A program made the position numbers and the translations under genes. The notes under the pieces were generated by a model. It ran no database searches. It was given only the letters and a program-made list of their open reading frames with translations, and was not told the origin of the DNA. DNA of 64,000 nt from Streptomyces antibioticus (GTDB taxonomy: Bacteria; Actinomycetota; Actinomycetes; Streptomycetales; Streptomycetaceae): contig NZ_KQ948422.1 in NCBI RefSeq assembly GCF_001514065.1, positions 1,240,001 to 1,304,000 of the forward strand, read 5' to 3'. Each line of letters begins with the position of its first letter. Within the stretch, counting starts at the first letter, position 1. Below, one piece after another: positions 13,412 to 18,255 of this stretch.

Positions 13412-14281
13412 TCAGGCGACCTTGTTCAGCAGGTCGGCCAGTACGTCGGGGCGTTCCAGGGCGATGAAGTGGCCGGCCTCGGCGACCTGGGTGAACTCGG
13501 CGGACGGCAGCAGTCGCCTGTCGGCTTCCCGGTCCGAGGGGCGGGACCAGTCCTTCTCGCCGTAGACGAGGTGGACGGGCGCCTTGACCTCGGGGTAGCG
13601 CGAGCGGGCCGCGATGAGGCTGGGCAGGGCCTGGTAGACGGCGCGGGCGACGGCCGGATAGCCGGGGCGGCTCCCCACCCGGAGCAGCTCGTCCACGTAG
13701 TCCTCGCGCAGCGCGCTCTTGTCGCCGAGGCCGCCTCGAAGGATCGCGCGGAGGGCGGGCCTGGGCTCGACCCCCGCGATCACCGGGCCCACACCGGGCG
13801 CGAGGACGCCGCTGACCACCACGCGGGCCAGGAGGCTGGAGCGGGCGATGCCGCCGCGGAAGTCGTACGTGTTCACCGCGACGACGCGCCGCACCCGGTC
13901 CGGCAGCTCGGCCGCGGTGGTCAGGGCGAGCACCGCGCCCATGGACTCCCCCACCAACGTCACGTCGTTCAGGTCGAGTTCGGTCAGCAGCCGCTCGACG
14001 CCCGCGCGCATCGCGGGCTCGTCGTACGACGCGCCGGGCACGATCTCGGAGTAGCCCATCCCCGGCAGGTCGAGGGCGTGGACGGTGTAGTGGTCCGCGA
14101 TCAGCGGGATGAGGTGGCGGAAGTGCTCGGCCTGGGTGCGCACGGTGTGCAGCAGGACCAGAGGAGCGCCGGTGCCCGCCTTGAGGTAGCGCAGTTCTCC
14201 CTCCCGGCCGTCGCGAGGGGGGATCGTGTGACTGGTGGTCCCCGGGATGTGGATCGTGGGACGTGACTCTTGGCTGGGCAT
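13412..14281 (-). CDS. Alpha/beta hydrolase under TetR-type operator
   Basis: 289 residues. The nucleophile elbow is GESMG (Ser113), the oxyanion region is LLHTVRTQ (about 44-50), the acid lies in VYGEKDWSRPSDRE and the His in EAGHFIALERP near residue 275, so a complete triad is present. No signal peptide. Ribosome site AAGGAG precedes ATG. The promoter region carries a twin palindrome with core ACCGATCGGT, also found at the nearby tetR and SDR genes, so it is probably repressed by that TetR protein. The likely role is breakdown of an ester or lactone that also acts as inducer; this is inference. Confidence 0.88.
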   Translation of the reverse strand: MPSQESRPTIHIPGTTSHTIPPRDGREGELRYLKAGTGAPLVLLHTVRTQAEHFRHLIPLIADHYTVHALDLPGMGYSEIVPGASYDEPAMRAGVERLLTELDLNDVTLVGESMGAVLALTTAAELPDRVRRVVAVNTYDFRGGIARSSLLARVVVSGVLAPGVGPVIAGVEPRPALRAILRGGLGDKSALREDYVDELLRVGSRPGYPAVARAVYQALPSLIAARSRYPEVKAPVHLVYGEKDWSRPSDREADRRLLPSAEFTQVAEAGHFIALERPDVLADLLNKVA

Positions 14282-14343
14282 CTCACCGACTCCTTGTACG
14301 TGAGGGATCGACCAAAACGGTCATGCCGCTCACCGGAGCATGA

Positions 14344-14384
14344 GAAACCGATCGGTCTCCATCAAGGTAAACCGATCGGTTTCC
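14344..14384. promoter_or_regulatory. Twin TetR operator upstream of alpha/beta hydrolase
   Basis: Two palindromes with identical core ACCGATCGGT (14347-14356 and 14371-14380), flanked by GAA/TTC, with core starts 24 bases apart. Together with 14341-14343 the module matches 17555-17597 over 43 bases with two differences. It lies 62 bases ahead of the hydrolase ATG. Confidence 0.8.
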
Positions 14385-14419
14385 GGCCGCAAGGCCGCGC
14401 GCCGGCGAAGCCACGGACG

Positions 14420-14539
14420 GGCGCCGAGAGCTACACGGCCACCCTGGCCCGGGGCGCCGGGATCTTCGTGGCCGGCGCGGCGCTCACGGCATTCCCGGCA
14501 CCGAGCACGGCCACCGCAAAACCGATCGGTTTCCAATGA
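14420..14539 (+). pseudogene. Probable remnant of an MFS transporter C terminus
   Basis: Between the operator sites lies an open plus-strand stretch whose translation (ESYTATLARGAGIFVAGAALTAF and onwards) resembles the last membrane helix of DHA2-type drug exporters, where SYT-x-AF-x-GAGIF-x-AGA is a usual pattern. There is no start codon with a ribosome site and no other helices. I read it as the tail of an exporter gene otherwise lost from between the operators and tetR. It is short, so chance similarity is possible. Confidence 0.35.
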
Positions 14540-14558
14540 GTCGGAATCGAGTTAACCT
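14519..14558 (+). promoter_or_regulatory. tetR autoregulatory operator and leaderless promoter
   Basis: A fourth-base-perfect copy of the palindrome (core 14521-14530, AAACCGATCGGTTT at 14519-14532) overlaps a TTTCCA -35 hexamer (14530-14535). A 17-base spacer leads to TAACCT (14553-14558), and the tetR ATG follows 6 bases later. There is no ribosome site, so a leaderless transcript is expected, blocked when the operator is bound. Confidence 0.65.
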
Positions 14559-14564
14559 CGCCAT

Positions 14565-15134
14565 ATGACCACCGAAGCAATGCCGAGCTCCCGAGAGCGC
14601 CTGCTGGAGGCAGCGGCCACCCTCACCTACCAGGAGGGCGTCAACATCGGCGTCGACGCGCTGTGCAAGGCGGCGGGGGTGTCCAAGCGCTCCATGTACA
14701 AGCTTTTCGAGAGCAAGGACGAACTGCTGGCGGCGAGCCTGGAGGAACGCGCCTCCGCCTATGCGACGACACTCCTTCCCGCCACGGACGACGACCGTCC
14801 GCCCCGCGAGCGGATCCTGCACGTCTTCGAACGGGCGGAGGCACAGGCGGGCGCACCCGACTTCCAGGGCTGCCGGTACCTCGTCGTGCAGATCGAACTC
14901 AAGGACCCGGACCACCCCGCGAGCCAGGTGGCCCGCCGGGTCAAGGAGAACCTGACGGCCTTCTTCCGCACCGAGGCCGAACAGGGCGGGGCGAACGACC
15001 CCGACCTGCTGGCCCGGCAGCTGATCCTGGTCTTCGACGGCGCCAGCGCCCGCGCGGGCATCAAGGCCGACACCCAGGACGGGCTCATCATTCCCACCGT
15101 GACCGCCCTGCTCGACGCGGCGCACCTGCGCTGA
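14565..15134 (+). CDS. TetR-family transcriptional repressor
   Basis: 189 residues. The N-terminal helix-turn-helix spans about residues 10-55 (SRERLLEAAATLTYQEGVNIGVDALCKAAGVSKRSMYKLFESKDELL), and the C-terminal ligand domain contains FQGCRYLVVQIELKDPDHPASQVAR, a feature of the AcrR/YcdC-like group. It probably binds the ACCGATCGGT palindromes at its own promoter, at the alpha/beta hydrolase and at the SDR gene 2 kb away. The start codon sits 6 bases behind a -10 hexamer without ribosome site. The likely effector is the substrate or product of the two controlled enzymes. Confidence 0.92.
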   Translation: MTTEAMPSSRERLLEAAATLTYQEGVNIGVDALCKAAGVSKRSMYKLFESKDELLAASLEERASAYATTLLPATDDDRPPRERILHVFERAEAQAGAPDFQGCRYLVVQIELKDPDHPASQVARRVKENLTAFFRTEAEQGGANDPDLLARQLILVFDGASARAGIKADTQDGLIIPTVTALLDAAHLR

Positions 15135-15220
15135 CGGGTCGCGCCCTTGCGGAAACCGACCTGGCGGGCGGGCGCGAGCACGTGGTGGTTCAACCCCGCA
15201 AGACCCGTGGGGCTTCGTGC

Positions 15221-16135
15221 TCACGCGGCCTCAGGGAAGCCGAACCGCTTGACGAGCCCCGGGTCCCCGAACGCGTTGATGCTCGCGATGCCCGTCCCGG
15301 TGACGGTGAGCACGAGGATGCCGTAGGCCCGACCGTTGAGGTAGCCGACCGCCGCGGGCTGGCCGTTCGCGCTGGTCGGCAACAACCGCCAGGTTCCCGG
15401 CGGGCCCAGGACCTGCCGGACGAGATAGGGCACGCACGTGGCACGGCCGGCGAACCACGTGCGCCACGGCGTCGCCTCGATCTTGGCATCGACACGCAGC
15501 AGCCGTTCAAGGGCCGCGCCATCGGCCTCCTCGATGGCCGCGATGTAATGAACGAGTACGGTGCTCAGCTTGCCCGGATCGAGTGTTTGCTCGACGTCGG
15601 GAGGCTCCTGCGCCAGCCGCGCACGCGCGCGCTGCAGCGTGCTCTTCACCGCTGCCGTGCTGGTGCCCATCACCTGTGCCACGTCCGACGCCGGCCACTC
15701 CAGCACATCCCGCAGGACGAACACCGCCCGCTGGCGGCCCGGCAACTTCTGGAGCGTGGCGATCAGCGCGATCCGCAGGCTGTCGCGCGCCGCCACGATC
15801 GCCGCCGGGTCGAGCATGGAGTCGGGAATGGGCTGAACCCATGGCCCTTCCGCGGCCGTCGGCGGGGTCATCGGGTCGTCGGCGGGTCCACCGAGGCCCG
15901 AAGGCAGGAACCGCCTGCTTCGGTGCGACAACGCGGAAAGGCATGCGTTCGTGGCGATCTGGTAGAGCCAGGTGCGCACCGACGACCTGCCCTGGAAGGC
16001 CTGGTACGAACGCCAGGCACGCATGTAGGTCTCCTGGATCACGTCCTCGGCGTCGTCCACCGATCCAAGCATGCGATAGCAGTGCGCCAGCAGCTCGCGC
16101 CGGTAGCGTTCCGTGTCCGTCGCGAAATCTCCCAT
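15221..16135 (-). CDS. ECF sigma factor with SnoaL-like C-terminal domain (SigG/ECF56-like)
   Basis: 304 residues. Region 2: RRELLAHCYRMLGSVDDAEDVIQETYMRAWRSYQAFQGRSSVRTWLYQIATNACL. Region 4: LPGRQRAVFVLRDVLEWPASDVAQVMGTSTAAVKSTLQRARARL. A C-terminal domain of roughly 110 residues (VLVHYIAAIEEADGAALERLL...INAFGDPGLVKRFGFPEA) has the SnoaL/NTF2 fold often fused to this group. The chosen ATG gives MGDFATDTERYRREL; a GTG 12 bases earlier overlaps the end of the DHFR-like gene upstream. The pairing of such sigma factors with a DHFR-like protein is common in actinomycetes, and the two are probably co-transcribed. Confidence 0.88.
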   Translation of the reverse strand: MGDFATDTERYRRELLAHCYRMLGSVDDAEDVIQETYMRAWRSYQAFQGRSSVRTWLYQIATNACLSALSHRSRRFLPSGLGGPADDPMTPPTAAEGPWVQPIPDSMLDPAAIVAARDSLRIALIATLQKLPGRQRAVFVLRDVLEWPASDVAQVMGTSTAAVKSTLQRARARLAQEPPDVEQTLDPGKLSTVLVHYIAAIEEADGAALERLLRVDAKIEATPWRTWFAGRATCVPYLVRQVLGPPGTWRLLPTSANGQPAAVGYLNGRAYGILVLTVTGTGIASINAFGDPGLVKRFGFPEAA

Positions 16136-16146
16136 CCCGATCGACA

Positions 16147-16701
16147 CTACGGGGCATAGGTGAGGGTGACGACTCCTGTCGCACTCGGTGTTGCGGACAC
16201 GAACCGCAGCGAGCGCGGCAACGCACCGTCGAAGAGCCGCTTGCCCTCGCCGACGACGAGGGGATGGACGCCGAGGTTCAGCTCGTCGATCAGGTTCTCC
16301 TGCAACAGAGTCCGCAGCAGCGTGAAGCTGCCGTACATCACGATGTTGCCGCCGGGCTCCTGCTTGAGCTTCGCGACCGTCTGTGCCGCTTCACCGGCAA
16401 GGACGGTGGCGTTCCAGGGCAACGGGCCGCGCAGCGTCCTCGTCACGACGAGCTTGGGAAGGGCGTTCATCGCCTCGGCATACGGCCCGGTGTTGCGCGA
16501 CCAGGCCTTCTCGAGGATCTCAAAAGTCGCCCGCCCCAGCAGAAAGGTGTCGCTGGCCAGGAGAGCGTCGGTGGCCCGCTGACGCGAGGTGTCGTCGAAG
16601 TAGTCCAGTGCCCAGCCGCCGCGTTCGATCTCGCTGAATCCGCCCGGATCCTGGACCACGCCGTCAAGCGTGATGAATGCCCCCGCGATGAGCTTGCGCA
16701 T
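16147..16701 (-). CDS. Dihydrofolate-reductase-like (RibD C-terminal) protein
   Basis: 184 residues: MRKLIAGAFITLDGVVQDPGG start, FLLGRATFEILEKAW, and GGNIVMYGSFTLLRTLLQENLIDELNLGVHPLVVGEGKRLFDG are the hallmarks of the RibD C-terminal/DHFR-like NADPH-binding family. Members are usually not true folate reductases and their substrates are unknown. GGAGACC precedes ATG. The sigma factor gene follows at once in the same direction, suggesting a shared response. A second DHFR-like gene lies at 30.7 kb. Confidence 0.87.
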   Translation of the reverse strand: MRKLIAGAFITLDGVVQDPGGFSEIERGGWALDYFDDTSRQRATDALLASDTFLLGRATFEILEKAWSRNTGPYAEAMNALPKLVVTRTLRGPLPWNATVLAGEAAQTVAKLKQEPGGNIVMYGSFTLLRTLLQENLIDELNLGVHPLVVGEGKRLFDGALPRSLRFVSATPSATGVVTLTYAP

Positions 16702-16833
16702 GATGGTCTCCGTCCTCGGGCCGGAGGTTCCGGCCCTCGCATAGGGAGACTCGGGTCAGCTCCGAGAGGAATCGGTCGGTGTGTCGAGACCGGTCGCGAT
16801 GCGCCCCCGGTGGGGCCTACTCCGGCTCCAGGT

Positions 16834-17535
16834 CTACTTCGCCAGCTGGGGGTACAGCGCGGCCAGGTCACCGGCCAGCCCCGCCTTGACCTGGCGGGAG
16901 ATGTCGTCGGCGAGGACTTCGTGGGCACCGGTCTCGATGCCGTCGAGGGCGAGTGCGGCGACGTCACGCGGGTCGGACTTGGGGGCGTCGACGCGGGCCG
17001 CGAGGTCCGTGTCGACGTAGCCGACGTGCAGGCCGGTGACGGCGATGCCGCGCGGCTGGAGTTCGAGGCGCAGGGAGTTGGTCTGTGACCACAGGGCGGC
17101 CTTGGAGGCGCTGTAGGTGCCGCCGAGCGCGATCCAGGACAGCACGGAGTGCACGTTGAGGAGGTGGCCGCCGCCGTTGCGCTCGATGATCGGCACGAAG
17201 GCGCGGGCGACGAGGAGCGGGCCGTAGAAGTTGGTCTCGAACTCCCGGCGTACGTCGTCGACCGGGGTGTCGAGGAAGGACCCGCCGACGGAGGCGCCGG
17301 CGTTGTTGATCAGCACGGTCACGTCCTGCGCCTGGGCGGCGGCCGCCGCGACGGAGGCCGGGTCGGTGACCTCCAGGGCGACCGGGACGGCGTCCGGATG
17401 CGTCACGCTGCGCGGGTCGCGGGCCGTGGCGTAGACCTTGGCGGCGCCTCGTGCGTACAGCTCTTCCACCAGGGCCTTGCCTATGCCGCGGCTGCCGCCG
17501 GTGACGAAGACGTTGGCGCCCTTCAAAGCGGTCAT
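16834..17535 (-). CDS. Short-chain dehydrogenase/reductase under TetR-type operator
   Basis: 233 residues, classical SDR: cofactor motif TGGSRGIG (12-19), NNAG (77-80), catalytic Tyr141/Lys145 in YSASK, and Ser in NVHSVLSW. Arg near the cofactor loop (ATARDPRS) suggests NADP(H). GGAGG stands ahead of ATG. A twin palindrome identical in design to that of the alpha/beta hydrolase lies 22 bases upstream, so the enzyme is very probably in the same TetR regulon although a DHFR-like/sigma pair separates them. The hydrolase and SDR may act in sequence, cleaving an ester and then oxidising the alcohol. Confidence 0.92.
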   Translation of the reverse strand: MTALKGANVFVTGGSRGIGKALVEELYARGAAKVYATARDPRSVTHPDAVPVALEVTDPASVAAAAAQAQDVTVLINNAGASVGGSFLDTPVDDVRREFETNFYGPLLVARAFVPIIERNGGGHLLNVHSVLSWIALGGTYSASKAALWSQTNSLRLELQPRGIAVTGLHVGYVDTDLAARVDAPKSDPRDVAALALDGIETGAHEVLADDISRQVKAGLAGDLAALYPQLAK

Positions 17536-17557
17536 GACTGCAATCCTCCACAGATGA

Positions 17558-17597
17558 GAAACCGATCGGTTTCCATCACGGTAAACCGATCGGTTTC
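17558..17597. promoter_or_regulatory. Twin TetR operator upstream of SDR gene
   Basis: Cores ACCGATCGGT at 17561-17570 and 17585-17594, again 24 bases apart, oriented towards the minus-strand SDR gene. Its far edge overlaps the stop codon of the DUF6461 gene, so that gene's transcription would run into the operator. Confidence 0.8.
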
Positions 17598-18255
17598 ACA
17601 TTGCAAGCCGATGGGGACGCAAGCTGAACGCGGCTGCCGGCAGCTCTGCCTCTGTCTCCTCCCAGGGGATCCAGAGGCCCAACTCGACTTCCAGGAACCG
17701 TAGAAACGCCACGTCACCCGGCTCATCTCCGCCAGCGACGAAGCCAAGGGCTGTTTCGGCCGGGACGCCGTTCGTGAGGTGGGGCAGACCGGGCTCGAAG
17801 GATGTCACCGGCTCCCCCTGGAAGGCGTAGCCGATGCGGCTGAACCCCTTGGCGTTGCGATGGATGCTGAAGGCGCGCCCCCGTTGAGACAGTGCGGCGA
17901 GGTAAGTGTCCGTACGGCACTGGAATTCCTCCAGCGCATAGGCCCACCCCGCCACCGCGCCCGCTCTCACGATGGTGTCGGGCGGGTCGGGGAGGAAGCC
18001 GCCGTCCGTCAGACGGGCGACCTCCGCCTCGTCTTCCCAGTCCAGGAAGTCGAGGTCACTGATGTGGTCGTCCGCGTCCCTGGTCAGCAACCCGTACGCC
18101 GCGAAGCGGGTCAGCGGGACGATACGAGGGTCCTCGGCGCCGATGCTGTGCAGCAACTCACGCGGCGAGAGACCCTCGCTGAGGGTGAGCGTGAAGCCGA
18201 CGTCGTAGGCGTCGGCTATCCAGCGCAGGCCGTTCCGTTCATGCTCCCCAACCAT
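17596..18255 (-). CDS. DUF6461-like uncharacterised protein
   Basis: 219 residues. Recognisable features of this Streptomyces family are GWAYALEEFQCRTDTYLAALSQRGRAFSIHRNAKGFSRIGYAFQGEPVTSFEPGLP and the acidic LTDGGFLPD segment. No signal peptide or membrane span. The function is unknown; such proteins often stand near other small orphan proteins. The next gene upstream (DUF6928-like) runs the same way. Its stop codon coincides with the edge of the SDR operator. Confidence 0.6.
   Translation of the reverse strand: MVGEHERNGLRWIADAYDVGFTLTLSEGLSPRELLHSIGAEDPRIVPLTRFAAYGLLTRDADDHISDLDFLDWEDEAEVARLTDGGFLPDPPDTIVRAGAVAGWAYALEEFQCRTDTYLAALSQRGRAFSIHRNAKGFSRIGYAFQGEPVTSFEPGLPHLTNGVPAETALGFVAGGDEPGDVAFLRFLEVELGLWIPWEETEAELPAAAFSLRPHRLAM

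What the first reader, a model, noticed from the sequence alone, without database searches (positions are those of the whole stretch)
14341..17597. A 43-base twin-operator module is duplicated in front of two separated genes
Positions 14341-14383 and 17555-17597 agree at 41 of 43 bases. Each holds two ACCGATCGGT cores exactly 24 bases apart, facing a minus-strand gene (alpha/beta hydrolase; SDR). Between the copies lie the tetR gene and a DHFR-like/ECF sigma pair without such sites. This implies a TetR regulon built by copying a whole promoter module, then split by an insertion or rearrangement. The two-site spacing (about 2.3 helical turns) suggests two dimers bound side by side.
Basis: partly seen in the sequence, partly recalled or inferred. 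Interest (0 to 1): 0.7.

Follow-up and report, generated by a model that had tools for sequence, protein, structure and literature searches.

The report
TetR regulon with operon-splitting scar
Two near-identical switch sequences in a Streptomyces genome look like the two-operator promoters of a small TetR-controlled gene set, and the copy in front of the hydrolase gene still carries what appear to be the first codons of a deleted neighbouring gene, a record of how one operon became two genes under the same switch.

Summary
In detail: 14341-14383 and 17555-17597 agree at 41 of 43 bases, each with two exact ACCGATCGGT sites 24 bp apart, the only such pairs in the 10.1-Mb genome at up to 2 mismatches. 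One detail is wrong: a fifth exact site (14521) lies before tetR. Each module looks like a promoter: the upstream operator fills the 17-nt -35/-10 spacer, the downstream operator starts near +1. In relatives 110 of 110 exact-core pairs keep TAnnnT at this register, against 0.12% by chance. Of 16 sampled genomes with the module, 14 carry this TetR clade and all 16 this or its sister. The 41/43 identity does not need recent copying: 33 of 485 hydrolase-SDR pairs from different loci reach it. In 21 loci SDR and hydrolase form one operon. The hydrolase leader, in the window too, keeps a decayed SDR leader and codons 1-4, joined to the SDR-hydrolase intergenic region. So its promoter is most likely the old operon promoter after SDR deletion; the second module belongs to another SDR copy. 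An MFS gene was also lost here. Binding, repression and ligand are untested.

The parts
14341..14383 (-). module 1: two-operator promoter of the hydrolase gene (probably inherited from a deleted SDR gene)
   Evidence: 41/43 identity to module 2; same plan in relatives
14371..14380 (-). operator 1 of module 1, inside the -35/-10 spacer
   Evidence: exact ACCGATCGGT; register conserved
14347..14356 (-). operator 2 of module 1, about at the start site
   Evidence: exact ACCGATCGGT; start site inferred
14387..14392 (-). proposed -35 TTGCGG of the hydrolase promoter
   Evidence: position; TTGC 12 nt before operator 1 in 29 of 33 hydrolase modules
14364..14369 (-). proposed -10 TACCTT of the hydrolase promoter, 17 nt after the -35
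14313..14324 (-). fossil SDR start: ATGACCGTTTTG (codons 1-4 of the deleted SDR)
14282..14306 (-). relic of the SDR-hydrolase intergenic region with the hydrolase RBS
   Evidence: alignment to operon intergenic regions
13412..14281 (-). alpha/beta hydrolase gene
   Evidence: Pfam PF00561, PF12697
14390..14511 (+). C-terminal remnant of an MFS (DHA2-like) transporter gene that stands at this place in relatives
   Evidence: blastn/blastp to the genes of relatives; family
14519..14532 (+). single operator of the tetR promoter, abutting its proposed -35
   Evidence: a site with up to 1 mismatch 43-46 nt before the start codon in 174 of 185 tetR homologues
14530..14535 (+). proposed -35 TTTCCA of tetR
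   Evidence: sequence, (inferred)
14553..14558 (+). proposed -10 TAACCT of tetR; transcript probably leaderless
   Evidence: TAACCT just before the start codon in 141 of 185 homologues
14565..15134 (+). tetR, the presumed repressor (189 aa)
   Evidence: Pfam TetR_N; PDB 3jsj_A close homologue, E 2e-87
15221..16147 (-). ECF sigma factor gene, lineage-specific neighbour, not a clear regulon member
16147..16701 (-). RibD_C (DHFR-like) gene paired with the sigma gene
16834..17535 (-). SDR family oxidoreductase gene
   Evidence: NF006119 (372.7 bits, cut-off 249), PF00106
17555..17597 (-). module 2: two-operator promoter of the SDR gene
17585..17594 (-). operator 1 of module 2, inside the -35/-10 spacer
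17561..17570 (-). operator 2 of module 2, about at the start site
   Evidence: start site inferred
17601..17606 (-). proposed -35 TTGCAA of the SDR promoter
17578..17583 (-). proposed -10 TACCGT of the SDR promoter

Best explanation
The window holds a small version of a TetR regulon of Streptomyces. TetR dimers bind the palindrome AAACCGATCGGTTT (inferred). At the SDR and hydrolase promoters two dimers bind, one between -35 and -10 and one at the start site, shutting out RNA polymerase; at tetR's own promoter one dimer overlaps the -35, giving weaker self-repression. An unknown small molecule releases TetR. The two modules descend from one promoter, that of an SDR-hydrolase operon. A second SDR copy with its own module arose; in the old operon the SDR reading frame was deleted almost exactly, which put the hydrolase directly behind the SDR promoter and left the SDR's leader and codons 1-4 as a scar. 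Shown by sequence comparison: promoter register, link of TetR to module, operon in relatives, scar. Inferred: binding, repression, induction, start sites, and the order of duplication and deletion.
For: Register: 110 of 110 exact-core pairs have TAnnnT at the same offset (random spacers 0.12%); TTGC 12-13 nt before operator 1 in 78 of 79 SDR and 29 of 33 hydrolase modules. Link: of 149 genomes, 14 of 16 with the 24-bp module carry the close TetR clade, 3 of 133 without it do, p = 5e-15 (labels set by hand). Self-site: 174 of 185 tetR homologues, 156 of 166 distinct ones, have a site 43-46 nt before the start codon. Operon: SDR and hydrolase adjacent in 21 loci (20 distinct SDR proteins). Scar: 16 of 33 hydrolase leaders, window included, beat all 200 shuffles against SDR 5' regions; 0 of 22 QueG-like leaders and 0 of 41 other modules beat all 100. 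L088 keeps codons 1-4 and the last 27 codons of the SDR, L212 only its last 14, L233 has 6 SDR codons fused in frame to the hydrolase. The leader's other half matches operon intergenic regions (L211 score 47, window 29; shuffle maxima 25 and 22). DNA trees: 11 of 14 hydrolases labelled as scarred form one group (support 93), and the separate SDRs lie among operon SDRs. A Thermus TetR-family protein binds CTGACCGATCGGTCAG with KD 2 nM (PMC7022988, passages).
Against: No binding or expression data. A consensus promoter scan found none here. 16 of 33 hydrolase leaders do not beat all shuffles at either SDR end, among them the close relative L210 (1 of 200 shuffles as good), so other routes exist or the scar has decayed. 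In the window the 3' half of the match covers only the 22 nt next to the hydrolase start, which orthologous hydrolases could share without an SDR. No hydrolase remnant lies behind the window's SDR, so a duplication of the whole operon with reciprocal loss is not shown. The trees are weakly resolved: operon against own module takes 8 changes on the DNA tree (2 forced by well supported branches), 11 on the protein tree (1 forced). 25 of 41 genomes with a TetR homologue have no 24-bp module at up to 1 mismatch.
Confidence: 0.8

Rival explanations
1. Recent duplication of the 43-base module as a unit, followed by a split.
For: 41/43 identity, the highest of the 8 same-locus pairs; the window's SDR module is slightly nearer to other hydrolase modules (mean 39.4) than to other SDR modules (38.6).
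Against: Same-locus hydrolase-SDR identities are 34-41 in 8 loci; between loci the mean is 37.3, the maximum 43, and 33 of 485 reach 41. The window's hydrolase module is nearer to other hydrolase modules (mean 39.7) than to SDR modules (37.2). The homology goes on into the leader and first codons, so the unit was not the 43-mer. Not excluded: local conversion that raised the window's identity.
Confidence: 0.07
2. Convergence: each promoter gained the operators independently under selection by the same TetR; the shared -10 and -35 explain the rest.
For: Modules before unrelated genes (QueG-like and others) share the plan.
Against: Hydrolase leaders carry the SDR leader and start codons; QueG-like leaders do not.
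Confidence: 0.07
3. Another TetR reads these sites, and the local tetR is only a neighbour.
For: Pairs with the same core occur with other flanks, probably in other regulons; relatives carry further TetR genes in the island.
Against: Tight co-occurrence and the conserved self-site; one match at E <= 1e-25 in the own genome, of 8 candidates scored among 117.
Confidence: 0.08

Closest known systems
Tn10 tetA/tetR control region (recalled, no call)
   Same: TetR-family repressor, two palindromic operators over the promoters, self-repression
   Different: operators there lie between divergent genes, about 30 bp apart; here two operators on each target promoter, one on tetR, and another palindrome
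Thermus TTHB023 (PfmR), PMC7022988, passages seen
   Same: TetR-family protein binding a palindrome with the identical core ACCGATCGGT (KD 2 nM); two promoters reported with two sites each
   Different: outer bases CTG...CAG rather than AAA...TTT; promoters of fatty acid biosynthesis genes; the two proteins were not compared here
PDB 3jsj_A, putative TetR-family regulator
   Same: close homologue of the window's TetR over residues 1-188 (E 2e-87)
   Different: the deposited name gives no operator, target or ligand; no paper with its code in the library
Operon death or splitting in genome evolution (recalled; search listing only)
   Same: an operon becomes separately transcribed genes
   Different: here promoter and presumed regulator are kept, and the break points of the gene deletion can still be read in relatives

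Membership tests
TetR family of repressors | N-terminal TetR_N helix-turn-helix | tested here: met
   PF00440, 39.6 bits against cut-off 24
TetR family of repressors | palindromic operator beside the regulator gene | tested here: met
   core begins 44 nt before the ATG; a site at 43-46 nt in 174 of 185 homologues
TetR family of repressors | dimer binding to the operator and release by ligand | not testable with these tools
   needs protein
a named NCBIfam TetR equivalog | score above the curated cut-off | tested here: not met
   best of 12 families: DicD_YjdC 39.4 bits, cut-off 240
recently duplicated promoter module | copies in one genome more alike than non-orthologous modules of different genomes | tested here: not met
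   8 same-locus pairs 34-41 of 43; between loci mean 37.3, maximum 43, 33 of 485 at 41 or more
operon split by deletion of the first gene | both break points readable: first gene's 5' end and the intergenic 3' part in the leader | tested here: met
   clear in L211-type leaders; in the window both halves are decayed but score above all 200 shuffles
operon split by deletion of the first gene | intact operon in relatives, as the older state | tested here: inconclusive
   operon in 21 loci; tree order favours it with weak support

The most novel reading that the evidence does not exclude
Operator spacing is an address. Two TetR clades with the same recognition helix read the same palindrome, but their SDR promoters keep the two sites 23-26 bp apart in one clade and mostly 30-35 bp in the other; where both live in one genome (G084, G104, G128) the spacing, through cooperative binding of two dimers, keeps the regulons apart.
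Probability: 0.1. Interest if true: 0.65.

Novelty: new variant of a known kind. Interest (0 to 1): 0.47.

Why it matters
It gives a defined Streptomyces regulon, not found in the papers searched, with a clear operator and promoter plan and a close solved structure, so repressor and ligand can be tested directly. The scars show, base by base, how the second gene of an operon can inherit the promoter and regulator of the first when that gene is deleted, a step in operon evolution that I believe is seldom caught.

Tried and rejected
Recent copying of the 43-mer. Helical phasing: spacings 23-26 and 30-35 do not keep one face of the helix, so strict side-by-side contact was dropped as essential. 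A spacing code set by TetR alone: spacing takes 2 changes on the TetR tree but also 2 on the SDR tree, so regulator and target cannot be told apart; two rows outside the close clade (L157, L162) have spacing 25; three genomes with 30-35 pairs (G068, G107, G108) have no sister-clade TetR in my labels, and two with 24-bp pairs (G033, G111) have only the sister clade. Reciprocal loss: no hydrolase remnant behind the window's SDR. Functional leader peptide: the fossil frame reads 13 codons in the window but runs on in L211 and L091, and the start codon is changed to GTG, CTG or ACG in several leaders. Sigma-70 consensus scan: nothing.

Rows dropped and labels by hand. In one search, 43 pairs (up to 2 mismatches) lacked TAnnnT on either strand, mostly the weakened twin of the transporter gene, and one had it on both strands; the 199 left were used further. 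In the 24-bp table I left out the own genome and the eight genomes whose pairs have other flanks (GTACCGATCGGTAC and others). The lists are cut, so sister-clade labels may be incomplete. The scar label was set by eye: it includes L210 and L250 (1 and 2 of 200 shuffles as good) and leaves out L188, which did beat all shuffles; L180, L213 and L250 fall outside the main scar group. One search prints 85 of 165 loci. Locus counts include some genomes twice (unnamed and named copies).

Papers: operator strings gave no Streptomyces study of this operator (listings only), gene-content terms none that I recognised as this regulon (listings only), 3JSJ none; subscription journals are missing from that library. 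Not used: structure prediction and fold search.

Full report
OBSERVATION. The two 43-mers agree at 41 of 43 bases and each holds two exact ACCGATCGGT cores 24 bases apart. With up to 2 mismatches the pair occurs nowhere else in the 10.1-Mb genome. AAACCGATCGGTTT occurs exactly four times in the genome, all here; of two copies with one mismatch, one is the remaining operator of module 1 and one lies on another contig, near genes that I read as ABC-transporter and MoxR-like.

WHAT THE MODULE IS. I collected 120 regions around TetR homologues from unnamed genus genomes and 44 loci from named genomes. They hold 199 oriented modules (43 further pairs without TAnnnT and one with it on both strands were set aside), 175 after removal of identical ones. 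Their common plan is CTTGC, then the first operator within a 17-nt spacer, then TACnnT, then the second operator. Among pairs with exact cores, all 110 distinct ones have TAnnnT at this register on one strand; random spacers do in 0.12%. In the window: -35 14387-14392 and -10 14364-14369 for the hydrolase, -35 17601-17606 and -10 17578-17583 for the SDR. The second operator thus begins near +1 (inferred). The tetR gene has one operator abutting a proposed -35, and its ATG lies where transcription should start, so it is probably leaderless; 174 of 185 homologues (156 of 166 distinct) have a site 43-46 nt before the start codon, and 141 of 185 have TAACCT just before it. A consensus promoter scan finds nothing; it asks for a close match to the E. 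coli consensus.

WHO READS IT. Among 149 sampled genus genomes besides the own, 16 have a 24-bp module with AA/TT flanks; 14 of these carry the close TetR clade and 16 of 16 this or the sister clade; 3 of 133 genomes without such a module carry the close clade (p = 5e-15). For 30-35-bp modules against the sister clade the count is 17 of 20, p = 8e-13 (labels read by hand). Residues A37-S43 (AGVSKRS) of the helix-turn-helix are invariant in 13 diverse members, with rare exceptions in the larger set (L115). A Thermus TetR-family protein binds a palindrome with the same core at KD 2 nM (PMC7022988, passages). Direct binding by the window's protein is inferred.

WHERE THE TWO COPIES COME FROM. In the 8 loci with both modules at spacing 24 and exact cores, hydrolase and SDR modules agree at 34 to 41 of 43; across loci the mean is 37.3 and 33 of 485 pairs reach 41. 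The window's value is the highest same-locus one but needs no recent copying; its nearest relatives L208 and L210 have 38 and 39. In 21 loci SDR and hydrolase stand in one operon. In the window's group the hydrolase stands alone, and its leader is the SDR leader: for L211, TTCTCCGGTGAGAGTCATGACCGTTTTG against the SDR's TTCTCCGGGGAGAGTCATGACTGTTTTG (26 of 28), followed by GTAATCCCCTCACACACAAGGAGTCGGCGAG, which matches the last base of the SDR's last codon, its stop codon and the intergenic region of an operon (L112; score 47, shuffle maximum 25). In the window the two halves are seen at 14324-14313 and 14306-14282 with more changes (scores 32 and 29; shuffle maxima 22 and 22); there the 3' half matches only the 22 nt next to the hydrolase start, which is weaker evidence. 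16 of 33 hydrolase leaders beat all 200 shuffles for the SDR 5' end, a seventeenth (L212) for the 3' end, and 16 do neither, L210 among them. Controls: 0 of 22 QueG-like leaders and 0 of 41 other modules beat all 100 shuffles (lowest of the 41: 1 of 100, L181). Other scars differ: L088 keeps codons 1-4 and the last 27 codons in frame; L212 the last 14; L233 has six SDR codons fused in frame to the hydrolase. Some may be steps of one decay rather than separate events. DNA trees put 11 of 14 hydrolases labelled as scarred in one group (support 93) and the separate SDRs among operon SDRs, so the operon is probably older. No hydrolase remnant lies behind the window's SDR; by eye, many of its relatives share the start of another small gene there.

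THE REST OF THE ISLAND. Many relatives carry, between hydrolase and tetR, an MFS transporter gene behind a weakened twin (ACCGATCTGT...ACAGATCGGT; 29 loci), and beyond tetR a QueG-like iron-sulphur protein (spacing 23 in 21 of 22 modules), a second tetR, another regulator or another SDR, in varying sets. At this place the window has none of these; 14390-14511 is what is left of the transporter gene. Elsewhere in the own genome I searched only for the transporter and the SDR: an 82% identical transporter without a module, and an SDR of 50% identity. The ECF sigma/RibD_C pair is at this place only in the window and L210 (Streptomyces sp. GKU 895) among the 85 loci printed.

SPACING. SDR modules fall into 23-26 and 30-35 bp. 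On the TetR tree this takes 2 changes (shuffled mean 22), and 2 on the SDR tree. It is inherited with the pair; whether it matters for recognition is open.

NOVELTY. A TetR-family local regulon with tandem operators is a known kind; this regulon and its operator did not turn up in the papers searched. The readable operon-splitting scars are the unusual part.

Noticed in passing
L091:6182-6215 and the same place in 29 loci: The MFS transporter promoter has a weakened, symmetric twin (ACCGATCTGT...ACAGATCGGT), mostly at the same 24-bp spacing and with the same CTTGC -35, without the TAnnnT -10; it may be released earlier than the enzymes.
   Followed up: partly
L233 (Streptomyces dysideae), hydrolase start: Six SDR codons are fused in frame to the hydrolase, so the hydrolase may be made from the SDR's start codon.
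   Followed up: partly
e.g. L004, L033, L037, L056: Other paired-operator families share the core with other flanks (GTACCGATCGGTAC; TGACCGATCGGTCA with a 10-base gap), probably other TetR regulons.
   Followed up: no
window 14565-15134, residues 34 and 102-103: C34 and the pair G102-C103 are invariant in 13 diverse homologues; a cysteine sensor is possible but untested.
   Followed up: no
L248 (Frankia canadensis): A 74% identical TetR with the SDR and a 24-bp module lies outside Streptomyces, which suggests transfer of the unit.
   Followed up: no
window 15221-16701: ECF sigma and RibD_C genes are paired end to end and, among the 85 loci printed, stand at this place only in the window and L210.
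   Followed up: partly
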